DNA from: a virus
Direction: 5' to 3' (one strand)
DNA: 36,504 bases
IMG/VR virus record: IMGVR_UViG_3300045286_000150
Location: 1-36,504 of that record
Shown here: positions 7,753 to 36,504 of the stretch, one piece after another
How the letters are laid out: each line of letters starts with the position of its first letter
How positions within the stretch are numbered: position 1 is the stretch's first letter
The notes under the pieces: model-generated
Told to the model about the DNA's origin: nothing
Seen by the model: the letters and a program-made list of their open reading frames with translations, nothing else
The model's database searches: none
Position numbers and translations under genes: made by a program

Positions 7753-9876
7753 ATGACCCTGCGCTTTGTCGTCCCGCTTTCGGTCCAGCCCAACGGCCTG
7801 ATATTCGGCGGGGACGCGCAGGGCGACGGCAGTTCAACCGCTGTCCTGGCGGATATCCAGTCCGACGACACGCTTGACTGTTCGGTCCAGGCCAAAACCA
7901 CTCATGCCGCCGCGCTGGCTGATGTCCAGGCAAATGATGTCGCCGCCGTCTTCGCATCGGCCATCCCGCTGCAGCCGATCCTTGTGGCGGACATCTCCGA
8001 CGATGACGCTGTCGTCGTTGCCGCCGCCGCGCATTCCATCCCTGTCGCGGCGGTCGCGGATACCAGCGATGATGATCTTATCGCCATCGCCGCCGGTGCA
8101 CCGATTCCCGAGGCCGTCGCCGGCCTGGATGATGTAGCGGATGATGATGTTATCGCGCTATCGGCCAATGCCTTTCAGTTAGTTGATGTCTCGATTTCGC
8201 TGTTTGACGAGGATGATGCTCCGTCCATGGCGGCCCATTATGATGCGGCGGTCTGGCGCGGCTATGCCATAAGAGTGGACAGCATCCACCAGGAAACCGG
8301 CAAGGTTTTCTCGGAGTTGGCATCGTCCTGGCAGCCACACTCCACCCGGTTAAATTCGACAGGCATGAAGTGGGATGCCGGCGTTGATTTGTCCACCGAC
8401 ATGGCTACGGATTGGTCCGGTGCGGTCAGGGTCGCAGCCAGGGATTCCAGCGCATGGGATCAGGCATCGCCATTGTTCGACGGCATGGCATCGTGGTTTA
8501 CCGCATTGCCGCCGCGAGACTATCGCCGCGACATGGCATGGCAGGAAGGCGAACCTATCGGTATTGGCCTGTCGGGAGGATTCAAGGGCCTGCCGGCGCG
8601 CAAGGGGTATCTGAGCATCCCCTGGCAAGAGGGCGCGGCCACTCAAAAAGGCAAGCTGTCGCCCTGGCAAAAGGGCCGCTTCGTTTCCCGCTCCAACCGC
8701 GAACCCTGGCAGGAAGCGGGAATTCCCCATACGGGGAAAACGCCGAGGCCTCCGCGACCGCCCGTTCCGCCGCTTCCGGTTATCCCTCCTGGCCTAATCT
8801 TTATCTGCGATTTCGCCGCCAATGCGCCGTTGGGCCTGATATTCGGCAGAATTTGCTATCCCGGCTGGTATTCAAGAAGGGTTTATATCGTGAAAAATCA
8901 TATCGAGGTCAAGCGATTGGCCGATAATGTGGCGATCGAGGTCATGAAGGTCGAACTTTCCATAGATCGAGGTTCGTGGGGATGGAGTTTTTCCTGTCAG
9001 GTCCCCTTCGCCGAGCGGGAAAAGGTGGATCCTGTTGGCGGGCCGGTGGAGATCGCCATCATCATCAATGGCTTTTCATGGCATGTACTGATCGAGAAAT
9101 TGACCGAAACCAGGCGTTTCGCCAATAACTCGATTACGGTTTCCGGGCGCTCGCTATCCGCCTACCTGGGCGATCCCTACGCGCCGCAGATCAGCATGAT
9201 CAATCTCCAGCCCCGCAACGCACAGCAGCTCGCCAACGACTGGCTGATCAATACCGGTTGGGAACTGGATTGGCAATGCGCAGACTGGTTGGTGGCCGCC
9301 GGCGCCTACAGCGTGGACCGAACCCGCGCCATCGATGGGATTTCGCAGATCGCGGCGGCCGCCGGGGCCTACCTGCAATCCGACCGCCAGGCGCAAACCC
9401 TCCATGCGTTGGCTGCTTACCCGTCGGCGCCCTGGTCATGGGCCAATGGCGATCAGGACATCAGCATCCCTGCCGGCGTGCTAAGAACACTCTCCCGGCA
9501 ATGGCTCGCCAAGCCAGCCTACAACGCCGTGGCCATTCGCGGCCAGAATAGCGGCGTTGACGACCTGGTGAAGATCACCGGCATGGCGGGAGACTTTTTC
9601 GCGCCATCCATCGTGGACCCGCTCATCACCCACGACGACGCCGCCAGGGCAAGAGGGCTGTCGATCCTGGGCGATACCGGAAAGATGGCGATGATCACCC
9701 TCGAACTGCCTATCTACGAGGAAACCGGCCTGATCGAAGTAGGGAAACTTGCGCGGGTGGTGGAGGATGCGGATTTATGGCTCGGCCTGACGCGCGGAAC
9801 CTCGGTCTCGGCGGAATGGGCAAACGGGCTGAAAGTGACACAGACAATCGAAATCGAAAGGCATTATTATGGCTAA
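7753..9876 (+). CDS. Tail hub-like protein with acidic 23-residue repeats
   Basis: 707 residues. Residues 33-132 hold five tandem repeats of about 23 residues, each with an (A/D)D-x3-(D/N)D core (starts near 33, 56, 79, 102 and 126). Residues 260-322 repeat a WQ-x-G motif four times. A proline-rich linker (about 329-345) leads to the C-terminal half (about 380-707). That half, with strands followed by an alpha/beta region, resembles phage tail-hub proteins of the gp27-like class. Position just before a small conserved hub partner and at the end of the tail operon supports a hub role. The N-terminal repeats may be an added module and have no function I recognise. Confidence 0.6.
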   Translation: MTLRFVVPLSVQPNGLIFGGDAQGDGSSTAVLADIQSDDTLDCSVQAKTTHAAALADVQANDVAAVFASAIPLQPILVADISDDDAVVVAAAAHSIPVAAVADTSDDDLIAIAAGAPIPEAVAGLDDVADDDVIALSANAFQLVDVSISLFDEDDAPSMAAHYDAAVWRGYAIRVDSIHQETGKVFSELASSWQPHSTRLNSTGMKWDAGVDLSTDMATDWSGAVRVAARDSSAWDQASPLFDGMASWFTALPPRDYRRDMAWQEGEPIGIGLSGGFKGLPARKGYLSIPWQEGAATQKGKLSPWQKGRFVSRSNREPWQEAGIPHTGKTPRPPRPPVPPLPVIPPGLIFICDFAANAPLGLIFGRICYPGWYSRRVYIVKNHIEVKRLADNVAIEVMKVELSIDRGSWGWSFSCQVPFAEREKVDPVGGPVEIAIIINGFSWHVLIEKLTETRRFANNSITVSGRSLSAYLGDPYAPQISMINLQPRNAQQLANDWLINTGWELDWQCADWLVAAGAYSVDRTRAIDGISQIAAAAGAYLQSDRQAQTLHALAAYPSAPWSWANGDQDISIPAGVLRTLSRQWLAKPAYNAVAIRGQNSGVDDLVKITGMAGDFFAPSIVDPLITHDDAARARGLSILGDTGKMAMITLELPIYEETGLIEVGKLARVVEDADLWLGLTRGTSVSAEWANGLKVTQTIEIERHYYG

Positions 9877-10096
9877 TCCCTGGCAGCAATTTCGTAATCT
9901 GCTTCCCGGCTCTCCGCTGATCATCGGCGAGGTGACGGCCCACAACGACGACGGTACCAGCACCATTAGCCTGCCCAACGGAGGCAGCGTCAACGCCATC
10001 GGGCAGGTAGTTGATATCAATCATCTGGCCTTTGTGCGCAACGGACAAGTGCTCGGCGAGGCACCGGCCCTGTCTCAATCCACCCTGGAAATATGA
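9869..10096 (+). CDS. Small baseplate/hub accessory protein
   Basis: 75 residues, overlapping the hub gene by eight bases. The sequence begins MANPWQQFRNLLPG and continues with a small beta-barrel pattern (GEVTAHNDDGTSTISLPNGG ... GQVVDI ... AFVRNGQVLGEAP). This resembles short OB-like proteins that follow the hub gene in related siphophages. Probable virion component of the tail tip. The stop overlaps the next start (ATGA). Confidence 0.6.
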   Translation: MANPWQQFRNLLPGSPLIIGEVTAHNDDGTSTISLPNGGSVNAIGQVVDINHLAFVRNGQVLGEAPALSQSTLEI

Positions 10097-10656
10097 TAAA
10101 ACCTCCCCTGGTCTCCGTGATCTGCCCGACCACACCGGCCCGCGACTCGTTTAGGCCGGCCTTCCTGCGCTATTATGGGGGACAGGACTACCGCAACAAA
10201 GAACTGATACTCATCGACGGACCCGGCACCATCGGCGCCAAGCGCAACTTCGGATGCGCCCGCGCCAGGGGCTGCATCATCGTGCACATGGACGACGATG
10301 ATTTCTACGCCTCCGATTGGATCAGCCGTTCGGTGGATTTTCTACTGATGCATCCCAATGCGGAGATCACGGGATTGAGCGATTTGTTTTTCAAGAAAGG
10401 CGAGGAAATCTGGAAATATACCTACAGTTATCCGCCTCACGCATGGGTGGGCGGGGCGACGATGTGCTATCGTAAATCAGTATGGGAGAGATTCAAGTTT
10501 CCCGACAAAATGATCGGTGAGGATTGCGATTTTCAGTGGAAATCGAAAGCCCGAATTTTCCCCCATGATTATATCGACGGATTCAAGGCAACCATTCATG
10601 ATGGGAATACATATAAAAACAATATGCAACTGAAGGAATGGACCAAGATTAGGTAA
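10093..10656 (+). CDS. GT2-family glycosyltransferase (GT-A fold)
   Basis: 187 residues. The N-terminal VSVICPTTPAR strand, a GAKRNFG motif (residues 48-54), and MDDDDFY (66-72) in the place of the nucleotide-sugar/metal-binding DxD match family 2 glycosyltransferases. GEDCDF (142-147) fits the catalytic acid region. There is no signal or membrane segment, so it should act in the cytoplasm. It is translationally coupled (ATGA) to the tail-hub accessory gene. It may glycosylate a virion protein or modify host surface glycans. Which one cannot be told from sequence. Confidence 0.8.
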   Translation: MIKPPLVSVICPTTPARDSFRPAFLRYYGGQDYRNKELILIDGPGTIGAKRNFGCARARGCIIVHMDDDDFYASDWISRSVDFLLMHPNAEITGLSDLFFKKGEEIWKYTYSYPPHAWVGGATMCYRKSVWERFKFPDKMIGEDCDFQWKSKARIFPHDYIDGFKATIHDGNTYKNNMQLKEWTKIR

Positions 10657-10901
10657 TGAAAATAATTATTTTATTATCATTGATAATGACGTTATCCAGT
10701 TGTCAATCACAAAAAGAACATGATTTGGTCTCGGTTGGGCATCATATCAACATCTGTTTCGATCAGTATTATATCGGTAAACCATCCGAACATTGCCTGG
10801 AAGCAATCAATAACCTGATATGCGAAGCGGAACACCATCACGAAGAAATGTTACGTCAGAAAAATATAAAACTGGAGTGCAATCATGAAAATAAAAAATG
10901 A
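10656..10901 (+). CDS. Small predicted lipoprotein
   Basis: 81 residues, start overlapping the glycosyltransferase stop (TAATG). The first 16 residues are a lipoprotein signal: a Lys, a hydrophobic core, then LSSC, so Cys16 should be acylated. The mature part is about 65 residues, His- and Cys-rich (five more cysteines) and not proline-rich, so it does not look like an Rz1 spanin. The DNA is visibly AT-rich compared with the tail genes. Possible roles are superinfection exclusion or another lysogenic-conversion function; neither is shown by the sequence. Confidence 0.65.
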   Translation: MKIIILLSLIMTLSSCQSQKEHDLVSVGHHINICFDQYYIGKPSEHCLEAINNLICEAEHHHEEMLRQKNIKLECNHENKK

Positions 10902-11076
10902 TAACGAGTTTGAATATTATTTAAATAAAGCGCGTTATTTCATGGGTAAACATCCTGATAATATTACTAAAGAAGAAATAAATGAAATTGAAGAAATAAG
11001 ATATTCATGTAAAGAATATGAATTGAAACAATTCAAAAAAATCAACAGTTTTTGTTCCGCAACGCATTTTAAGTAA
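10885..11076 (+). CDS. Small AT-rich helical protein, unknown
   Basis: 63 residues, overlapping the lipoprotein gene by 17 bases. It is charged and almost wholly helical, with a DNITKEEINEIEEI segment. No family recognised. Very low GC and codon use unlike the tail operon suggest a late-acquired moron together with the lipoprotein gene. Confidence 0.5.
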   Translation: MKIKNDNEFEYYLNKARYFMGKHPDNITKEEINEIEEIRYSCKEYELKQFKKINSFCSATHFK

Positions 11077-11168
11077 TTGATTAGGAAACTATGTTTTTTC
11101 CCTGTTTTTGGATTATTGAGGAACGCAAAGCGATATAGGCCTATGTTTTTAAATAAATTCGTTGCAGT

Positions 11169-11223
11169 CTTAAAATCCCTCGCCTTTACCGGCGTGCCGG
11201 TTCGACTCCGGCCCGAGGCACCA
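11169..11223 (+). other. attP core: 3' half of tRNA-Leu(UAA)
   Basis: From 11169 the sequence reads as a tRNA from its anticodon loop (CTTAAAA, anticodon TAA at 11171-11173) through the 3' anticodon stem (TCCCT), a long variable arm, a T arm (GCCGG-TTCGACT-CCGGC) and the acceptor strand CCGAGGCA ending in CCA at 11221-11223. The bases before 11169 (GCAGT) do not pair with TCCCT, so the 5' half is absent. This is the classic integrase target: the phage restores the 3' end of the host tRNA on integration. It lies about 80 bp from the integrase gene. Confidence 0.88.
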
Positions 11224-11231
11224 GGTTAATC

Positions 11232-11304: not shown

Positions 11305-12351
11305 TTATTTTGTGGGGGTAACTTTATCGCCTTTGCGGTCGCGGACGTAGTGCTCGGTCATGACGATTGTGCTGTGGCCAAGTTGCCGCTGCGCGGCGTG
11401 GATGGTGGTGGTTTCGGATTTATCGGTGGCGGCTTTGGCGCGAAGATCCATGAAGCGGAATCGGCGAATGGCATTGGCCAATAGCGGGTTGGCTTTGGCT
11501 GCGGCTTCGCGGGCTTTGTCGAAGCGTCCGCGCAGGGTATGGTAATTCATCGCTCGGCCATCCCCGACGATCAGCAGGTTGAGGGGGCGAATGGTAAAGG
11601 CTTGCTTGTGAGATTTGATGCGATCGAGCAGTGCGGAAAGTTGGCCGGTTATTTCGATGCGGAGCTTTTTGCCGGTTTTGCCCTGGCAAACTTCTAGGAT
11701 ATTGCCACGAATATCGGTCTCGCTCATTTTGAGCAAATCGGCTTCCCGCTGGCCGGTGAGATAGGCAAGGTCCAGGGCATCGCGCAATGGCCAATCGGCG
11801 GCTTGCCATACGGCCTGGAATGCGTCGTCTTCGATATAAACATCCCTGCCTTGTTCCCTAAATCCTTTGATGCCCTGGCAGGGGTTTGGTGCATCGGTGT
11901 AGCCCCATTCGCGGGCTTTATTAAAGATGTGGGAGAACAGGGCTTTTTCCCGATTGGCGCGGATTTTCGCCTGGGCTCCTCGCCAGTCGAGATATTGCCG
12001 GATGTGGATAGGCTTAATCTGCTCGATGGGCGCGGGTGGGGCGTCGAAGAATTTGTACAAGGCCTCGATTTCACGCAGGTTCAACTTTCGAGTCGCGGGG
12101 GCTTTGGTGGGGAGGATTTCGCGGATGTAGCGCTCGGCCACATAGCGAAAGGTGATGATCTGCGGGTGACGCGGCTTGGCGTCGATCTCCAGTTGCGCCC
12201 ATTGTTTTACCGCCAGCGCGTAATCATTGCCAAGGGGTATTTCCTTTCTTGGCTTACCGCCTGCATCGTAGTAATACCAGGTCTTACCTCCACGAATACG
12301 AGCGCGGAGACGCGGAGGCAGGTTTTGATGTTTGTACGGTTTGCGGCCCAT
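11305..12351 (-). CDS. int: Tyrosine recombinase integrase
   Basis: 348 residues, the last gene of the leftward early operon. It has an N-terminal arm-binding region, a SAM-like core-binding domain (about 65-165) and a catalytic domain with Arg202 (TGQRE), Lys225 (GKTGKK), Arg304 (in MDLRAK; the usual His of the HxxR box is Met301), His326 (LGHST) and nucleophile Tyr335 (EHY). It catalyses site-specific recombination between attP and the host tRNA-Leu gene. The adjacent attP core and the adjoining DUF4224 gene support a complete integration module. The RDLRAK-like variant of the HxxR box is common in gammaproteobacterial phage integrases. Confidence 0.95.
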   Translation of the reverse strand: MGRKPYKHQNLPPRLRARIRGGKTWYYYDAGGKPRKEIPLGNDYALAVKQWAQLEIDAKPRHPQIITFRYVAERYIREILPTKAPATRKLNLREIEALYKFFDAPPAPIEQIKPIHIRQYLDWRGAQAKIRANREKALFSHIFNKAREWGYTDAPNPCQGIKGFREQGRDVYIEDDAFQAVWQAADWPLRDALDLAYLTGQREADLLKMSETDIRGNILEVCQGKTGKKLRIEITGQLSALLDRIKSHKQAFTIRPLNLLIVGDGRAMNYHTLRGRFDKAREAAAKANPLLANAIRRFRFMDLRAKAATDKSETTTIHAAQRQLGHSTIVMTEHYVRDRKGDKVTPTK

Positions 12352-12359
12352 GGCGAGTA

Positions 12360-12572
12360 TTATCCGCGCAAAACGCGCGGTTGCCAGTCCTGGCCAGGTG
12401 TTGAAATGGGTCCCGGCGTTCCTTCCACTGCCGAACGGCAGACGACTGGGCGTCCAGCGGCATTGACGCGAAAGGGAATACCACTAAGGCGTAACCACGC
12501 AATCTGGTGTTGATGGCGCTTGCGTCCAGTTAATTCAGAAAGTTCACTGGCAGTGAGAAATAAAGTTTTCAT
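12360..12572 (-). CDS. DUF4224 protein (probable excisionase/recombination regulator)
   Basis: 70 residues from the ATG at 12572. A longer reading frame extends upstream, but only the segment from MKTLFLTASEL matches the family. The FLTASELSELTGRKR, then Q-x2-WL-x3-GIPF, then NAAGRPVV pattern is characteristic of DUF4224, whose members are found next to phage integrases and are thought to help direct excision. The stop is eight bases before the integrase start. Confidence 0.8.
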   Translation of the reverse strand: MKTLFLTASELSELTGRKRHQHQIAWLRLSGIPFRVNAAGRPVVCRSAVEGTPGPISTPGQDWQPRVLRG

Positions 12573-12597
12573 GCCGTCATTTACCAACATCGTCAAT

Positions 12598-12810
12598 TCA
12601 CTTGCGTAAATGTTCCAGACAGATGGCCTGTCGGGTAGTGGAAAAACCGCCCAATGCGCAACGCAGTGTCTCCAAATTCTGGAGATGGGGGTCTTCATAA
12701 ATAACTTTAAGGTGAATGCAATTGCCGCACATGTCTCGATTCATGCTGGATTTCCAGTCCTGTTTGGCGCGGGCTTGTTCTTTCAGGGTTCCACTGGCAT
12801 CGGCTTTCAT
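12598..12810 (-). CDS. Small cysteine-containing (zinc-binding?) phage protein
   Basis: 70 residues from the ATG at 12810. This start shares its A with the upstream stop (TGATG) and has a strong SD, GGGAGGA, seven bases before it. An in-frame start at 12846 lacks those features. CGNC, a later single C, and a final C form a possible metal-binding set. Function unknown; part of the leftward early operon. Confidence 0.65.
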   Translation of the reverse strand: MKADASGTLKEQARAKQDWKSSMNRDMCGNCIHLKVIYEDPHLQNLETLRCALGGFSTTRQAICLEHLRK

Positions 12811-16770: not shown

Positions 16771-17040
16771 TTAAAGCAATTTGACCAGGGTGGCCACCGC
16801 GCCGACGGCCACCACCATTAATGCCCCAAGTTTGATGACCATGCGCTGTTCCAATAGGGCCAGCTTGTGTTCGAAGCGCCCCTCCATATGCTGAAGATCG
16901 GTTTTTGTGGCCAATTCTTTCAAATTGACTTCGAAAGCTTCCGCCAAGGCTTCCGGCTCGGCCTCCGCTTGTTTGCCGGGAACGCCGGCAGCCTTGAGCC
17001 GATTGGAAAATTTCAACGTATCGAATGAAATGGTTGCCAT
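16771..17040 (-). CDS. DUF1640 coiled-coil protein, paralogue 3 (shortest)
   Basis: 89 residues from MATISFDTLKF at 17040. Longer upstream frames read through the palindromic repeat. It has a DTLKFSNRLKAAGVP-x-KQAEAE start, an internal coiled coil, and a conserved C-terminal hydrophobic tail (MVIKLGALMVVAVGAVATLVKLL, given in short form) predicted to be a membrane segment. Compared with paralogues 1 and 2 its central coil is shorter. Membrane-anchored coiled-coil proteins of this family have no settled function in phages. Tandem array discussed at 17501 and 17949. Confidence 0.8.
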   Translation of the reverse strand: MATISFDTLKFSNRLKAAGVPGKQAEAEPEALAEAFEVNLKELATKTDLQHMEGRFEHKLALLEQRMVIKLGALMVVAVGAVATLVKLL

Positions 17041-17043
17041 GAA

Positions 17044-17073
17044 GATGTTTCGTATTGGCCTCGTTTTCCGTGC
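17044..17073 (-). repeat. Leader repeat upstream of each DUF1640 gene
   Basis: The word ATGTTTCGTATTGGCCTCG then TTTTCCGTGCT (plus strand) occurs just upstream of all three DUF1640 genes, at 17044-17073, 17841-17871 and 18277-18306, with one to three differences. It is part of the duplicated unit, and being kept in each copy it may hold a promoter or translation signal. Confidence 0.7.
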
Positions 17074-17083
17074 TAACGGAATG

Positions 17084-17120
17084 CAATTCGTTGGGTTGCG
17101 ATAGAGCCACAATCCAACCT
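17084..17120. repeat. Palindromic repeat, copy 6
   Basis: AATTCGTTGGGTTGCGATA then GAGCCACAATCCAACC, followed by TTCGCGGCT. Sits between the DUF1640 paralogue 3 leader and the HNH gene. Confidence 0.8.
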
Positions 17121-17133
17121 TCGCGGCTAATTT

Positions 17134-17418
17134 CTATCTCCCACGGCAATTCTTGCGTTCCCACTTGTCTTTGGCTTTACCTTCCTCTACCGATTGCCAT
17201 TGCATATTGGTGGGAGCATCCGATCCGCCGCAATCCAGTGGTTTGACATGGTCGATCACTTGGCCAGGGCAAGGCCCGCGATTATTTCCGTTCGTTGGAC
17301 AAGGATTTTCTCGTTTGAATTCATCTTTCGCCGCGGCGCTACGTTCACGTGAATCAGCCTGATCGATTTGAAAACCAGCTAGCAAAACCAGCATGGCCAT
17401 AAATGTTTTTTCTCTCAT
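17134..17418 (-). CDS. HNH nuclease-like protein with signal peptide
   Basis: 94 residues. SD GGGGAG four bases before the ATG. An N-terminal hydrophobic stretch (MAMLVLLAGF) resembles a signal peptide, and GQVIDHVKPLDCGG-x-D with NMQWQ and a KDKWE tail match the HNH core, with DH, N and the last acidic residues as catalytic/metal ligands. It is likely a secreted or periplasmic HNH protein. Its placement between two DUF1640 paralogues suggests capture during rearrangement; the family is also found in chromosomes. Confidence 0.7.
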   Translation of the reverse strand: MREKTFMAMLVLLAGFQIDQADSRERSAAAKDEFKRENPCPTNGNNRGPCPGQVIDHVKPLDCGGSDAPTNMQWQSVEEGKAKDKWERKNCRGR

Positions 17419-17500: not shown

Positions 17501-17824
17501 TCATAGCAATTTGACCAGGGTGGCCACCGCGCCGACAGCTACGACCATCAATGCTCCCAGTTTGATGACCATACGCTGCTCTAATTGAATCATCTTTCCC
17601 TCCATGCGCTCTTCCATCCTAGCCATGTCCTTTCGCAAATCAGAAATTTCTGCCTTTAACTCGGTCTTCATGGCCGCCATGTCGAACTTCGTTGCCAGGT
17701 CCTTGATGTTGCCATCGAGTACGTCGGCCAGTACTTCAGCTTCCGCCTTGGCCTGGGCCTCGGACACACCGGCCGCTTTCAGCTTCTCGACGAATTTCAG
17801 GGTATCGAAATACATCATGCTCAT
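17501..17824 (-). CDS. DUF1640 coiled-coil protein, paralogue 2
   Basis: 107 residues. The N terminus (DTLKFVEKLKAAGVSEAQAKAEAE) and the C-terminal tail (KLGALMVVAVGAVATLVKLL) are almost identical to the other two copies, while the middle (KAEISDLRKDMARMEERMEGK) differs. The C-terminal segment is a predicted membrane anchor. The coding and flanking DNA around 17486-17900 is a clear duplicate of 17927-18320, so this array arose by tandem duplication. Confidence 0.85.
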   Translation of the reverse strand: MSMMYFDTLKFVEKLKAAGVSEAQAKAEAEVLADVLDGNIKDLATKFDMAAMKTELKAEISDLRKDMARMEERMEGKMIQLEQRMVIKLGALMVVAVGAVATLVKLL

Positions 17825-17948: not shown

Positions 17949-18272
17949 TCATAGCAATTTGACCAGGGTGGCCACCGCGCCGACGGCCACCATCATCAAA
18001 CCGCCCAGCTTGATTGTCATCCGACGTTCTAAGTCGCGTAATTCCAGACGAATCAATTCAAGATCGTGCTTAAGGCGAGATTCCGCTTCACCAATATCGC
18101 GTTTTAACGAGGTTTCCACGTCCTTTAAATCGCGCCTGGAGGCCAATTCGTTCAGATTGATCTCCATGACTTCAGCCAAGGCTTCGGCTTCCGCTTCGGC
18201 TTGTTTTTCGGGGACGCCGGCATCCTTCAAGCGCTTGGAATATTTCAGTGTATCGAAGGTAATAGTTGCCAT
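17949..18272 (-). CDS. DUF1640 coiled-coil protein, paralogue 1
   Basis: 107 residues, starting at the ATG at 18272 just downstream of the repressor gene. DTLKYSKRLKDAGVPEKQAEAEAE opens the typical DUF1640 pattern, a long polar coiled coil (LKDVETSLKRDIGEAESRLKHDLELIRLE, shortened here) follows, and a hydrophobic C-terminal anchor ends it. The three copies keep both ends and vary in the middle. In a lysogen this operon is likely expressed with the repressor. Confidence 0.85.
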   Translation of the reverse strand: MATITFDTLKYSKRLKDAGVPEKQAEAEAEALAEVMEINLNELASRRDLKDVETSLKRDIGEAESRLKHDLELIRLELRDLERRMTIKLGGLMMVAVGAVATLVKLL

Positions 18273-22031: not shown

Positions 22032-22283
22032 TTAACTCTCTAATCTCCTGATGCCGATTTCTTTTAGCTCTGTTTCTGACAATGCAAAAATAATTTCTAT
22101 GGCTTTTTGAATGGTTGATTTGATGGGAGAATGTATAGTATGGCTAAGGGAAAGTTTATAGACAAAAACAGCCTGGCAATTCTTATTAATGCAGTGACAA
22201 AAAAGGTCGTGAGAAGTTGGAATGATAGAGTTTCTTGAAGTTATTATTGCTTTTTCATTACAATAAGGACAGCTTATTTTCAT
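22032..22283 (-). CDS. ogr: Ogr/Delta-like late transcription activator
   Basis: 83 residues. CPYC at 5-8 with KAIITSRN, then an aromatic segment and C-x-N-x2-C near residues 31-36, then FVYKLSLSHTIHSP, is the hallmark of the Ogr/Delta family, zinc-binding activators of P2 late promoters. It would act by contacting RNA polymerase at late promoters of the divergent head operons. Its start lies inside the end of the portal gene (26-base overlap), so it is co-expressed with portal and terminase. Confidence 0.85.
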   Translation of the reverse strand: MKISCPYCNEKAIITSRNSIIPTSHDLFCHCINKNCQAVFVYKLSLSHTIHSPIKSTIQKAIEIIFALSETELKEIGIRRLES

Positions 22284-23310
22284 AATGCAACTTTCTAGCT
22301 ACAGCGTTCCAGATCGGCTCGGCGAATTCTATCCATTGATCTCGCGGCAAATGGTCGTTGATGCCCTGAAAGGCACGCTGCATGGGGGGTACCTCAAGTT
22401 CAACGTAGACTCGCATCACTTTTTCTAGATCCCCGAATCCTGCCGTATTCTCCGGTATTACTCCTGCAATACCCGGCTGCATACGGTGCATTGCGAGGGT
22501 CTCAGCCTTGGTGATGTCCTTGATCGCCTGGAAATCGTCCTTGGTCCCGATGTCGCCGATGGGTATTATCTTTACCGGCTCGCGGGATGATGTTCGAGGA
22601 ATGTTTATGTACAGATTGCGAAAATTTCCGGGTCCCCTGGACAGTTTAACTTGTTCCTCGATCATCTTGGCTGTTTCATCGTTGATACCGGCATCGCTGG
22701 TGACAAGAATATAGCCGGCATGAGACCCGTTACGGAAGTATTTTCGACGGAACAAAGTAGCGTCTTCCGAAAGTAATACTGACTGTAATCCGCCGAAATA
22801 CTCAGGAATACCATATATCTCCTGTTTAACGTCATCCTCCATGATAATGAACACTTCTCCAGGCTGATACTTCAATGGAGCGTTCATGTAGCGATAGTCC
22901 CGCATCTCGAAATAAACGTCCTCATCCACGCCAGCCCGCATCATTAGTGCTGGTCTGCGCTCAATGCGAAGTATCTGGCCGAAGCGATTAAGTATCTTGC
23001 GAAAGTAACACATACCGAATACATGATAATCGAGGGCGGCCTTTTTGGCATCGCTGTAGCTCAGGATGGGCGAGGGCAACAGCCATTTGACCAGCATGTT
23101 GCGTTTAAACCTCAGAATGGCATTATGCTGAGCATTGGCGTTCATGGCCTTGGCCAGCCCCATCAGATAGATCGGCGGGATGTAGAAGCCGAACATCAAA
23201 TCCGGGAAGACGCCCAGAAAATCGGCCATATGATCCTTAAGCACCGGCTCGGGATCGCCGAAGGAAAATACCATCGACCCGCCCATCATTATTTGATCCG
23301 TTGTATTCAT
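22258..23310 (-). CDS. Q: Portal protein (P2 GpQ-like)
   Basis: 350 residues from the ATG at 23310, ten bases after the terminase stop. A longer frame to 23373 overlaps the terminase gene. It is the portal ring through which DNA enters the capsid. GDPEPVL near the N terminus, then the LVSRP-like central DYHVFGMCYFRKILNR and GIPEYFGGLQSVLLSEDAT regions, are as in PBSX/P2-type portals. It is leftward and adjacent to the terminase, the P2 gene order. Confidence 0.9.
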   Translation of the reverse strand: MNTTDQIMMGGSMVFSFGDPEPVLKDHMADFLGVFPDLMFGFYIPPIYLMGLAKAMNANAQHNAILRFKRNMLVKWLLPSPILSYSDAKKAALDYHVFGMCYFRKILNRFGQILRIERRPALMMRAGVDEDVYFEMRDYRYMNAPLKYQPGEVFIIMEDDVKQEIYGIPEYFGGLQSVLLSEDATLFRRKYFRNGSHAGYILVTSDAGINDETAKMIEEQVKLSRGPGNFRNLYINIPRTSSREPVKIIPIGDIGTKDDFQAIKDITKAETLAMHRMQPGIAGVIPENTAGFGDLEKVMRVYVELEVPPMQRAFQGINDHLPRDQWIEFAEPIWNAVARKLHYENKLSLL

Positions 23311-23320
23311 GAAAATCTGC

Positions 23321-25102
23321 TCAATTGCTGAAAGAAACCCGCGTCCCCACGATATCGCGGCTGATCGGCTCATAGATCATGGCATGCATGCAGGCCCAGG
23401 CGACATCAGCATGGCCATTGGTATTGGTGCGCGTCGTAGCATAGGTGATATGCCCAGTCTCGCTCATGGTTCGCCGAATCATCAGGAAAGACTGAACGAT
23501 CTCCTTATCGCCGGCGTCGAATTCCAGGCGGCTCGGGGGCTGGATCACATCCAGCGCCTTGATGATCAACTGGTTCTTCATCTGCAGGCTATAGGTAATC
23601 GGCTGTACGGACGGATAGAAGCCCTGCACCAGCTCGTAGACTCCCCAACCCATGCCGCTCACATCAATGCCGACATGAACCACATTATGCCGGTTCACCA
23701 CGTCCCGGATGCAATCGGCCTGATGCTGAAAGCTCTTACCGTGCAGGCTTATTCGATGCAGAAGCTGCCATTTATCGTCAGGCCGAATAGGCACGGACAT
23801 CAGAACCAGTGAAGCGTTGTCCGTTGTCCGGCTTGGATCGTAGCCGATGGCCACCGGTTTGTTGCCGAAAGGTCTGGCCTTGTTGATATGATAATCAGTC
23901 CAGTTACAATCGTTATCCACTCCACAGGCAAGGAGGAGCTGCAACGGAAATACCGACTGTGCGTCATCAATGAACTTGCACATGAACAGATTGGCGAAAT
24001 CGTCCGTGTTGTACTCCTTCCTCAGCTCCTCGATGTCGAACAGATTGCAGCCGTCGCGTTCGGCATCCTCCACGGTGACGACATGCCGCCAAATTTTATC
24101 CTCTCCCAGCAGTCCATTTTTCAGTGTGCTGTGGGATACATCGAACTCCACCGTCGCATCCCCGGTTTTGCCCTCGTTGAATTTTTTCCCTGACCACATT
24201 TCATAGGCATCATGGCTAAGGGTTGACGGCGTTGAGAATAGCGTCCGGCGCCATTTCCTGTGCGCTGCCATGCCCGAGGAGACCCTCCAGAGCTTGGAAA
24301 ACTGCGGAATCCAGAAAACCTCGTCCAAATACAAATGGCCGTGATAGCTCTGCGAAGTGCGGCTGTTCGTCGAAAGGAAGCGCAGCTCGGCCCCGTTAGA
24401 CAATTTGATGGGGTTTCCCGTCAATTCGATTTCCAGCTCGTTCTTGGCGAACTGGACGATGTAATGCTTGAAAACCTCGGCCTGGTCGCGGCTGGCGGAT
24501 AGAAAAATCTGGTTGTCGCCGGTCAGTATGGCGTCTTCAAGCGCTTCCCAGGCGAAGTAATACGTGGCGCCGATCTGACGGCTTTTTAGAATGAATCGGT
24601 TGCGCCTGGTTAAAAGGCTTTCCTTGGCTTTGAACCATTCCTGCTGATATCCATAAAAAAGCTTTTTGCGGATGGCTTCCAGTTCCTGATACTGGACGCC
24701 GCTGACATCGTTTTTTACGCCAGACGGCTTGTATCCTGGTTTACGGCCCCTTTTCTTCTCGGGCGGCGGCATGCCGATCAGATTATCCAGCGACCCGGAT
24801 TTGATCCGGGCCGTCTTCTCCATGGTTATCGCCAGGCTGTCCAGGCGTTTCAGCACCATGTCGAATTCATCCAGTTCAATGCGTGTTTTGCTGTCCTTGG
24901 CGGCGAGTACGGCGATGCGAGTGGTCAGCAAATCCAGGACATTCTCATGGGCATAAACCCTGCCCCACTGATATTTTCGAGCCCATTGATAGATGGATTC
25001 GCGGCTGATCTTTAGCCGTTTGGCCGCCTCAGGAAGAGTCAGCCCGCTTTCGTACAGATCGCGCGCGGCTTTTATTGTCTCATCCGAATATTTCTCAGAC
25101 AT
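23321..25102 (-). CDS. P: Terminase large subunit (P2 GpP-like)
   Basis: 593 residues. An N-terminal HTH (about residues 19-45) is followed by an ATPase domain with Walker A SRQIGAT (174-180) and Walker B LYLDE (257-261), and a nuclease domain with GYDPS (Asp422) and GIDVSG (Asp480). It packages DNA with the portal and the small subunit at 27200. Divergent from the scaffold gene, as in P2. Confidence 0.95.
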   Translation of the reverse strand: MSEKYSDETIKAARDLYESGLTLPEAAKRLKISRESIYQWARKYQWGRVYAHENVLDLLTTRIAVLAAKDSKTRIELDEFDMVLKRLDSLAITMEKTARIKSGSLDNLIGMPPPEKKRGRKPGYKPSGVKNDVSGVQYQELEAIRKKLFYGYQQEWFKAKESLLTRRNRFILKSRQIGATYYFAWEALEDAILTGDNQIFLSASRDQAEVFKHYIVQFAKNELEIELTGNPIKLSNGAELRFLSTNSRTSQSYHGHLYLDEVFWIPQFSKLWRVSSGMAAHRKWRRTLFSTPSTLSHDAYEMWSGKKFNEGKTGDATVEFDVSHSTLKNGLLGEDKIWRHVVTVEDAERDGCNLFDIEELRKEYNTDDFANLFMCKFIDDAQSVFPLQLLLACGVDNDCNWTDYHINKARPFGNKPVAIGYDPSRTTDNASLVLMSVPIRPDDKWQLLHRISLHGKSFQHQADCIRDVVNRHNVVHVGIDVSGMGWGVYELVQGFYPSVQPITYSLQMKNQLIIKALDVIQPPSRLEFDAGDKEIVQSFLMIRRTMSETGHITYATTRTNTNGHADVAWACMHAMIYEPISRDIVGTRVSFSN

Positions 25103-35341: not shown

Positions 35342-35722
35342 ATGACTACTGCAACCATTGCAGCAGGGAATCTGGATCTGCAATTCATGCAGGGTTCCCG
35401 CGTGGATGCCTCCACCCTTCAAATCCTCCTAAAATCCGGCGACCCGCCAGAGTACGTTAATTTGAGCGGCTGGTCGGCGCGGGCAGTGTTCAAGGCAAAG
35501 ATCAAGGACCAGACAGCGCAATTGGATTTGAAAAGCTCGGAGAATACCATTTTGCTCAACAACCCGACCGGCGCCATCGTTCTGATCATCAGTGAACAGG
35601 CCAGCTCGTCAATGACCAAATATGCCGGCGTGTGGAATCTGGAATTAACGTCTCCGGATGGCATAACCAGTCGATTACTCCAGGGAAATTGGACCATGAG
35701 TCCGGATGTTAGTCATGACTGA
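35342..35722 (+). CDS. Small Ig-like tail protein upstream of the fibre
   Basis: 126 residues. Seven beta strands (including [12 protein letters not shown] and [10 protein letters not shown]) suggest an Ig/beta-sandwich fold. It overlaps the fibre start by eight bases. Probably a fibre-attachment or linking protein. Confidence 0.55.
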
Positions 35723-36504
35723 ATCGATTGAGGTTATAACGGTTGGCGATACGCAAATCGATGTCATTGTTCCAAACGCTCCATTGATCATCGAGTTAGC
35801 GACTCAAATAGGTCCAGCGGGGTCTCCGGGACCTCAAGGGACTGAAGGGCCTCAAGGACAACAGGGGCAACAGGGGCCGCAGGGGCCGCAGGGGCCGCAG
35901 GGGCCGCAGGGTCAACAGGGACCACAAGGTCCACAGGGACCAGAAGGGGGACCACCGGGTCCACAAGGTCCACAGGGTCCACAAGGTCCACAAGGGCCAC
36001 AAGGTCCGCAGGGGGCTAAAGGCGATACCGGCGCTGACGGGGCTGCCGGAGCTGCCGGGGCACAGGGAGCCCAGGGGCCACAAGGTCCCCAGGGATTGAA
36101 AGGTGACAAGGGCGATACCGGCGATACCGGGGCTGCGGGTGCGCAAGGAGCACAAGGACCACAGGGGCTAAAAGGCGATACCGGAGATACCGGCGCTACC
36201 GGGGCTGCCGGGGCTGCGGGTGCGCAAGGTCCACAAGGTCCTCAGGGGCTAAAAGGCGATACCGGCGATACCGGGGCTGCGGGTGCGCAAGGAGCACAAG
36301 GACCACAGGGGCTAAAAGGCGATACCGGCGCTACCGGAGCTACAGGCGCTACCGGGGCTGCCGGGGCTGCCGGGGCTGCGGGTGCGCAAGGAGCACAAGG
36401 ACCACAGGGGCTAAAAGGCGATACCGGAGATACCGGCGCTACCGGGGCTGCCGGGGCTGCGGGTGCGCAAGGTCCACAAGGTCCTCAGGGGCTAAAAGGC
36501 GATA
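35715..36504 (+). CDS. Collagen-like tail fibre protein, N-terminal part (continues at base 1)
   Basis: Starts at the ATG at 35715, overlapping the previous gene by eight bases, and is open to the window end. The first 32 residues ([19 protein letters not shown] and on) are non-collagen and probably anchor the fibre to the tail. From residue 33 the protein is Gly-X-Y. One single-residue interruption (GPEG-GPP) is at residues 78-79. With 1-720 it forms a protein of 460 residues with about 100 triplets. Fibre length is uncertain because the DNA is repetitive. Confidence 0.85.
36135..36261. repeat. Third copy of the 127-bp word, 243 bp before the terminal copy
   Basis: Identical to bases 1-127 and 36378-36504. 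The next base differs: C at 36262, T at 128. The 127-bp word is thus a branch point in the assembly, and the 243-bp spacing (81 codons, 27 triplets, in frame) is a plausible unit of expansion or collapse in the fibre gene. Confidence 0.9.

What the first reader, a model, noticed from the sequence alone, without database searches (positions are those of the whole stretch)
10093..11076. Glycosyltransferase, lipoprotein and small AT-rich gene appended to the tail operon
A GT2 enzyme is coupled by overlapping codons to the hub cluster, followed by a lipoprotein (Cys16 lipobox) and a charged small protein with markedly lower GC. It looks like a moron cassette that might modify receptor glycans, glycosylate the fibre, or exclude other phages.
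Basis: partly seen in the sequence, partly recalled or inferred. Interest (0 to 1): 0.55.

Follow-up and report, generated by a model that had tools for sequence, protein, structure and literature searches.

The report
Sugar-adding gene beside phage tail genes
A virus of bacteria carries, at the end of its tail genes and right beside its integration site, a compact sugar-transferring enzyme that most likely decorates the virus particle itself, followed by a small membrane-anchored protein and a tiny protein for which no relatives were found.

Summary
A GT2 enzyme (10093-10656), a lipobox protein (10656-10901) and a 63-aa protein (10885-11076) overlap one another and the tail operon. In eight hub relatives examined this slot holds other genes, not the GT.

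The GT model is a confident GT-A fold. In 19 of 46 loci of viral relatives the major head protein lies directly upstream (3.3 expected by random placement; 15 of the 19 are one clade). The nearest relatives lie between portal and protease, the slot of the Corndog-group glycosylation cassette. The family profile matches Che8 gp108, from the cluster that includes the virion-glycosylation enzyme gp110; gp110 itself does not match. No flippase or membrane-anchored GT is beside it, so Gtr-type serotype conversion is not supported. I favour late virion glycosylation (about 0.55); a receptor-blocking lipoprotein (about 0.35) rests on analogy only. Acceptor, sugar and host are unknown.

The parts
7753..9876 (+). 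tail hub / tail protein (phrog_6079), the gene cluster to which the cassette is appended ('hub' is my reading; PHROGs says tail protein)
   Evidence: PHROG E 3.4e-131; 35 phage records with a tblastn match
9869..10096 (+). 75-aa tail-operon protein (phrog_5076), conserved just behind the hub; its stop overlaps the GT start (ATGA)
   Evidence: PHROG E 3.3e-24; tblastn match behind the hub in 6 of 8 relatives, one of them weak (L009, E 0.003)
10093..10656 (+). compact soluble GT2 glycosyltransferase, 187 aa, GT-A fold, DDDD and GED motifs
   Evidence: PF00535 29.5 bits, cut-off 23.3; model pLDDT 92.4; PDB 6p61 Z 19.2; conserved motifs
10656..10901 (+). 81-aa lipoprotein, lipobox LSSC, Cys16, four further Cys in the mature part; no relative found
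   Evidence: sequence; no relative, only sub-threshold lines
10885..11076 (+). 63-aa charged protein, 24% GC; no relative found
   Evidence: sequence; no relative, one sub-threshold line
11170..11223 (+). attP core: 3' half of a tRNA-Leu (UAA by my reading) from the anticodon to CCA
   Evidence: blastn to annotated attP / tRNA-Leu of Haemophilus phages S2 and HP1 and to HP2 (not annotated there) over exactly these bases, 79.6%; ARAGORN finds no whole tRNA
11305..12351 (-). tyrosine integrase; excisionase-like gene next at 12360-12698(-)
   Evidence: phrog_1 E 3.9e-48, PF00589; excisionase phrog_8896 E 1.6e-18
35706..36504 (+). start of a collagen-like fibre gene that runs across the record ends (127-bp end repeat) to base 720; a guessed sugar acceptor
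   Evidence: 464 aa, 103 GXY triplets, 23 with Thr in Y; the acceptor role is a guess

Best explanation
The cassette fills the variable slot between the end of the tail operon and attP of a temperate tailed phage. SHOWN: gene order and overlaps, a confident GT-A fold model, attP and integrase beside it, and relatives of the GT inside head-tail operons of many uncultivated phages. INFERRED: the GT is translated late together with the tail proteins. As a soluble enzyme it uses a host nucleotide sugar to glycosylate a particle protein made at the same time, perhaps threonines of the collagen-like fibre (a guess). The lipoprotein, made late from the same message, is exported to the outer membrane, where it may block the receptor so that progeny do not stick to debris and other phages are kept out. 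The role of the 63-aa protein is unknown.
For: Overlap coupling to the tail genes. No membrane segment in the GT: highest 19-residue mean hydropathy 0.66. GT-A model pLDDT 92.4, TMq 0.72 to 6p61, Z 19.2. Nearest viral relatives (43-45% identity, L013-L017 and L019): in L015 the order is portal, two methyltransferase-like genes, a GT11-type enzyme, the GT2, ClpP-like protease, and further on a major head protein; in L019 two other GT2s stand before the GT2. The Corndog relatives Firecracker and Catdawg hold an O-methyltransferase and GTs in that same portal-protease slot (PMC4351075 passages). In L002 two GT2s lie between a tail terminator and a major tail protein. Family context: the upstream neighbour is a major head protein in 19 of 46 loci, 3.3 expected by random placement within each locus; downstream neighbours include head-tail adaptors, proteases, major tail proteins, methyltransferases and further GTs. 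Gordonia phages GodonK (E 3e-3) and Sixama (E 0.1) have a weakly matching GT between head-tail genes and tape measure. The profile of the window GT and eight relatives finds Che8 gp108 at E 1.2e-18 for Z 1000; Che8 virions are reported glycosylated (PMC12363180 passages). Small lipoproteins that block a phage receptor are known in T5 and Rtp (PMC9586334, PMC12685063 passages).
Against: No glycan, sugar or acceptor has been seen. The enzyme reported essential for capsid glycosylation, Che8 gp110, does not match the profile, nor do Che8 gp109, Catdawg gp34-36 and Firecracker gp36; only gp108 does, and with the window GT alone only at E 2.7e-4. Not all relatives lie in structural operons: those of Che8, Yoshi and Ronaldo do not, 27 of the 46 viral loci have no major head protein directly upstream, and Pedobacter has a chromosomal GT2 cluster. 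15 of the 19 head-protein neighbours fall in one GT clade, so they are not independent. The window GT's nearest rows by path are chromosomal, and its grouping with the portal-protease GTs has support 81/89 only. The slot beside attP is also where gtrABC lies in serotype-converting phages (PMC3636060 passages). The tallies have no control with other phage GT families. Nothing but analogy supports the lipoprotein role.
Confidence: 0.5

Rival explanations
1. The GT modifies a host surface glycan in the lysogen (serotype conversion in the broad sense), so that the receptor of related phages changes; the lipoprotein reinforces exclusion.
For: Same slot as gtrABC in Shigella serotype-converting phages, immediately beside attP (PMC3636060 passages). 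The GT-A model also resembles a viral GtrB (BFVD rank 24, E 4.2e-9). A chromosomal GT2 cluster of this family exists in Pedobacter.
Against: No membrane segment in the GT, no flippase or third gtr gene in the cassette; relatives often sit in structural operons.
Confidence: 0.22
2. The slot is a lysis slot: the lipoprotein is an outer-membrane spanin and the small protein an unrecognised lysis protein; the GT is a passenger.
For: Two hub relatives carry lysis genes exactly here: ACPWH lysozyme and Rz, Haddon endolysin. No endolysin, holin or spanin was recognised among the roughly 37 window proteins scanned with PHROGs.
Against: No TM protein in the slot; the lipoprotein is not proline-rich as Rz1 proteins are (recalled) and is Cys-rich; no family match above a cut-off.
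Confidence: 0.12
3. Passenger DNA picked up at the prophage end (AT-rich, 33% GC), of no use to the phage.
For: Sharp GC change at 10468, genes without relatives, position next to attP.
Against: GT motifs and fold intact, three overlapping frames without decay, and a family that recurs in structural operons.
Confidence: 0.14
4. The GT glucosylates modified phage DNA, as in T4-like phages.
For: Phage glycosyltransferases can modify DNA (PMC12619734 passages; PMC2884959 passages).
Against: No DNA hypermodification gene recognised among the window proteins scanned; tail-operon position.
Confidence: 0.03

Closest known systems
Che8 gp108-110 glycosyltransferase cluster of mycobacteriophage Che8
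   Same: gp108 matches the profile of the window GT and its relatives (E 1.2e-18 for Z 1000); Che8 virions are glycosylated and gp110 is reported essential (PMC12363180 passages; the primary paper, Freeman 2023, is not held)
   Different: Che8 has three GTs with no annotated structural gene in the 7.4 kb fetched, and gp108 is 391 aa; the window has one 187-aa GT at the tail-operon end; gp109 and gp110 do not match
Corndog-group cassette between portal and capsid protease (O-methyltransferase plus GTs)
   Same: Slot and kind of genes like those around the window GT's nearest viral relatives (L015, L019)
   Different: The Catdawg GTs and Firecracker gp36 do not match the profile; the window GT stands alone after the tail hub
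gtrABC serotype-conversion cluster (Shigella phage SfI and kin)
   Same: Beside attP and integrase (PMC3636060 passages); a glycosyltransferase is involved
   Different: No flippase or membrane-anchored GT in the cassette; the GT overlaps the tail operon
T5 Llp / Rtp45 superinfection-exclusion lipoproteins
   Same: Small lipoprotein of a tailed phage; Rtp45 about 6 kDa, this one 7.8 kDa when mature
   Different: No sequence match to solved structures; here it lies beside tail and GT genes; receptor unknown
Leptospira GT 6p61 and other solved GT-A enzymes (heparosan synthase, SpsA)
   Same: GT-A fold, Z 19.2 to 6p61 over 158 residues
   Different: The window GT lacks about 22 residues after its second strand relative to the bacterial relatives aligned

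Membership tests
GT2 glycosyltransferases (PF00535) | Profile match above the curated cut-off | tested here: met
   29.5 bits against 23.3
GT2 glycosyltransferases (PF00535) | GT-A fold | tested here: met
   model pLDDT 92.4, pTM 0.89; solved GTs rank first
GT2 glycosyltransferases (PF00535) | DXD metal site, ED catalytic motif | tested here: met
   D67, D69, D70, E143, D144 invariant in 9 of 9 rows; assignment of their roles is recalled
GT2 glycosyltransferases (PF00535) | Sugar transfer activity | not testable with these tools
   needs an assay
Virion-glycosylating phage GTs (Che8, Corndog type) | Sequence relationship to a GT reported essential for virion glycosylation (Che8 gp110, Corndog gp38) | tested here: not met
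   Che8 gp110 and, for the Corndog group, Catdawg gp34-36 and Firecracker gp36 give no match at E up to 1; Corndog itself is not held. The neighbouring Che8 gp108 does match (E 1.2e-18, Z 1000)
Virion-glycosylating phage GTs (Che8, Corndog type) | Location in a head or tail operon (Corndog type; not so in Che8) | tested here: met
   overlap with tail genes; relatives
Virion-glycosylating phage GTs (Che8, Corndog type) | Glycan on virion proteins that depends on the GT | not testable with these tools
   needs mass spectrometry
gtrABC serotype conversion | Located beside attP and integrase | tested here: met
   attP 11170-11223, integrase
gtrABC serotype conversion | Membrane-anchored GtrB, GtrA flippase and a serotype-specific Gtr beside each other | tested here: not met
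   no 19-residue window above 1.6 in any of the three proteins; no GtrA match in the cassette
Llp / Rtp45-type exclusion lipoproteins | Lipobox and short mature protein | tested here: met
   LSSC by eye, 66-aa mature part, 7.8 kDa
Llp / Rtp45-type exclusion lipoproteins | Sequence or fold relationship | tested here: inconclusive
   no PDB sequence match up to E 10; single-sequence model pLDDT 64.9, too poor to search with
Llp / Rtp45-type exclusion lipoproteins | Blocks a phage receptor | not testable with these tools
   needs adsorption assays
Spanins (Rz1-type) | Lipoprotein paired with an inner-membrane spanin | tested here: inconclusive
   no TM protein in the cassette; an unrecognised partner elsewhere in the genome is not excluded

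The most novel reading that the evidence does not exclude
This compact GT2 family is a portable virion-glycosylation module that has entered structural operons at several different positions (behind the major head protein, between portal and protease, before the major tail protein, behind the tail hub) in many unrelated phages. Sugar-coated virions would then be common among uncultivated tailed phages, not a speciality of mycobacteriophages. In this phage the module is paired with a receptor-blocking lipoprotein at the prophage end.
Probability: 0.3. Interest if true: 0.7.

Novelty: new variant of a known kind. Interest (0 to 1): 0.45.

Why it matters
In the papers seen here, glycosylated virions are reported for a few mycobacteriophages, where the sugars shield the particle from antibodies. 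If the family studied here acts on virions, the same trick may be widespread in environmental phages, and gene order alone (GT next to the major head or tail protein) would tell which particles to test. The cassette also suggests that the slot between tail operon and attP can carry late genes instead of lysogeny genes.

Tried and rejected
It aligns (79.6-85.2% in the 20 rows shown, 30 records in all) to tRNA-Leu or attP stretches of phages of Gammaproteobacteria and of an Acidovorax-group phage, which only hints at the group.

Serotype conversion: not the first choice because membrane parts are missing. DNA glucosylation: no supporting gene found. Lysis slot: kept as a rival.

Fold comparison does not separate the roles: a Che8 GT of 391 aa (rank 18) and a GtrB (rank 24) both match. 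The lipoprotein model is poor and was not searched. RNA folding of 11074-11230 gives no unusual structure (z 0.61). Rfam gives only a sub-threshold hit (P31, 25.2 against 40 bits). Hub alignment A1 was not conserved enough to scan genomes; the hub as a single protein gave no viral relative.

Rows dropped: one search kept the best 80 of 131 confirmed relatives. Of 91 loci given to, 24 had no phmmer hit at E 1e-3 and 14 more were near-copies, leaving 53, of which 51 viral; 46 of these had a same-strand upstream neighbour within 500 bp and 44 a downstream one, 42 of the latter distinct since L015, L017 and L019 share one. ORF calls were mechanical, so some neighbours may be wrong. The context labels other than 'MCP' in the tree were set by eye; later bore out portal, major head protein, tail terminator, major tail protein and tail-hub labels for L015, L002 and L083, while the terminase labels (L018, L098) were not checked one by one.

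Literature: ten searches. bear on GT genes and virion sugars; apart from the Corndog group no survey of GT genes beside structural genes was seen in their listings, of which only some papers were opened. For every paper cited I saw passages found by terms, not the whole text. Freeman 2023 (PMC10527164) is not held and is cited second-hand.

Full report
WHAT IS THERE. The window is a whole virus record of 36,504 bp, for which no completeness value is given. It has an exact 127-bp end repeat, which suggests a complete genome, though the repeat lies inside a repetitive collagen-like fibre gene. It is a temperate tailed phage: portal, large terminase, scaffold, major head protein, tape measure, tail proteins, integrase, excisionase-like protein and repressors are recognised. 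The tail operon ends with the hub (7753-9876) and a 75-aa gene (9869-10096). The GT (10093-10656) begins in an ATGA overlap with that gene, the lipoprotein (10656-10901) begins on the last base of the GT stop, and the 63-aa gene (10885-11076) begins inside the lipoprotein gene.

ATTACHMENT SITE. At 11170-11223 lies TTAAAATCCC...GGCACCA, by my reading the 3' half of a tRNA-Leu(UAA). ARAGORN calls no tRNA, as expected for a half gene. blastn against phage records aligns exactly these 54 bases to tRNA-Leu genes and to the annotated attP of Haemophilus phages HP1 and S2. The integrase follows at 11305-12351(-). After integration the cassette would lie at the prophage end away from the integrase, next to host DNA (inference).

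THE SLOT IS VARIABLE. Of 35 phage records with a hub match I looked at seven, and at one viral contig, L005. The 75-aa gene has a tblastn match behind the hub in six of these eight loci, one of them weak. What follows differs: methylase (S1), lysozyme and Rz (ACPWH), tRNA-Cys and integrase (PCA1), small genes (Y8A), a putative lipoprotein on the other strand (AS1), a repressor region (LR797314), endolysin (Haddon), one small ORF and an integrase (L005; integrase). An integrase follows within the stretch in five of eight (L005, S1, ACPWH, PCA1, AS1). None of the eight held stretches has a tblastn match (E 0.01) to the GT, the lipoprotein or the 63-aa protein.

COMPOSITION. GC falls stepwise: hub 60%, GT first half 59%, second half 44%, lipoprotein 34%, 63-aa gene 24%. 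The best change-point lies inside the GT at 10468. So either the AT-rich block joined within the GT, or the whole cassette is foreign and partly adapted. I cannot tell which.

THE GT. Pfam GT2 above cut-off. With eight relatives AlphaFold gives pLDDT 92.4, and solved GT-A enzymes match best, 6p61 with Z 19.2. Asp/Glu motifs are invariant in nine of nine rows. About 22 residues after the second strand, present in the bacterial relatives, are missing. The protein has no membrane segment.

WHERE RELATIVES LIE. Nearest viral relatives are 43-45% identical (L013-L017, L019). In L015 the order is portal (PF05136), two methyltransferase-like genes, a GT11-type enzyme, the GT2, a ClpP-like protease and, two genes on, a major head protein (PF03864); in L019 two other GT2s take the place of the methyltransferase-like genes and the GT11-type enzyme. 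The protease is identical in L015, L017 and L019, so near-identical phages exchange this cassette. In L002 two GT2s lie between a tail terminator (PF11367) and a major tail protein; L003 reads the same there. A wider scan confirmed 131 viral relatives, of which 80 were kept. Among 46 non-redundant viral loci with a same-strand upstream neighbour within 500 bp, that neighbour is a major head protein (phrog_10) in 19. A head-protein relative lies somewhere in the held stretch in 30 of 46, and random placement of the GT among same-strand ORFs would give 3.3 adjacencies. Downstream neighbours (44 scanned, 42 distinct) include six methyltransferase matches (phrog_6636), six GT matches (phrog_2456), four head-tail adaptor matches (phrog_442), three head protease matches (one protein in three loci) and one match each to three major-tail families (one protein may match several families). 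The tree needs three changes for the head-protein label (2-3 in bootstrap trees); 15 of the 19 lie in one clade, three in another, one apart, so the count is not 19 independent events. Other positions (portal-protease, tail terminator, tail hub) occur elsewhere in the tree.

NAMED PHAGES. At E 1e-5 the GT has no match in 50,697 phage records. At E 1 it has 31: 15 Gordonia, 13 Mycobacterium and three other phage records. GodonK and Sixama carry theirs between head-tail genes and tape measure. Ronaldo, Yoshi and Che8 carry theirs among genes not annotated as structural. A profile of the window GT and its relatives finds Che8 gp108 (E 1.2e-18 for Z 1000) but not gp109, gp110, Catdawg gp34-36 or Firecracker gp36. 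Passages of PMC12363180 say that Che8, Corndog and Myrna virions are glycosylated and name Che8 gp110 and Corndog gp38 as essential. Passages of PMC4351075 place the Corndog cassette between portal and protease, where Firecracker and Catdawg show it too.

MECHANISM. I read the GT as a late, soluble enzyme that glycosylates a particle protein as it is made (about 0.55). The collagen-like fibre with 23 threonines in Y positions of 103 GXY triplets is the acceptor I would test first, but nothing links it to the GT. The rival, host-glycan change as by gtrABC, has the same position next to attP (PMC3636060 passages) but needs membrane partners that are absent from the cassette. For the lipoprotein, exclusion or progeny protection as by T5 Llp or Rtp45 (PMC9586334, PMC12685063 passages) is an analogy. 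It has no relative above a cut-off in any search made. The same holds for the 63-aa protein.

VERDICT. The GT is a compact variant of a known kind of phage enzyme in an unusual place. It fails one membership test, likeness to the GTs reported essential for virion glycosylation, so I say it works like these and not that it is one of them. The recurring placement of its family beside major head proteins is the part that deserves follow-up.

Noticed in passing
14295, 14822, 16254, 16324, 16736, 17086, 17883 (46-nt units): Seven copies of a palindromic element (GTTGGGTTGCGAT..GAGCCGCAACCCAACCTAC) between small genes of the early region; REP- or MITE-like, perhaps of host type.
   Followed up: partly
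16771-17112, 17501-17824, 17949-18272 (-): Three similar proteins of 107-113 aa with a C-terminal hydrophobic segment; the third matches CCDC90-like just below the Pfam cut-off; DNA repeats D2 and D3 cover parts of them.
   Followed up: partly
whole window: No endolysin, holin or spanin recognised among the roughly 37 window proteins scanned with PHROGs, although two hub relatives carry lysis genes in the slot taken here by the GT cassette.
   Followed up: partly
17134-17418 (-): 94-aa protein with an HNH-like motif and a hydrophobic N-terminus by eye; no Pfam match, weak PHROG match.
   Followed up: no
L022:1967-12525 (Pedobacter sp. MR2016-24): Chromosomal cluster of seven GT2 genes of this family interleaved with small proteins of 83-127 aa sharing a C..G..(M/I)CAIY-like motif by eye, possibly acceptor peptides.
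   Followed up: no
L013-L019 except L018, portal-protease interval: Near-identical phages exchange the GT/methyltransferase cassette while flanking head genes stay the same.
   Followed up: partly
22258-25102 (-): Portal and large terminase are on the strand opposite to the other head genes.
   Followed up: no
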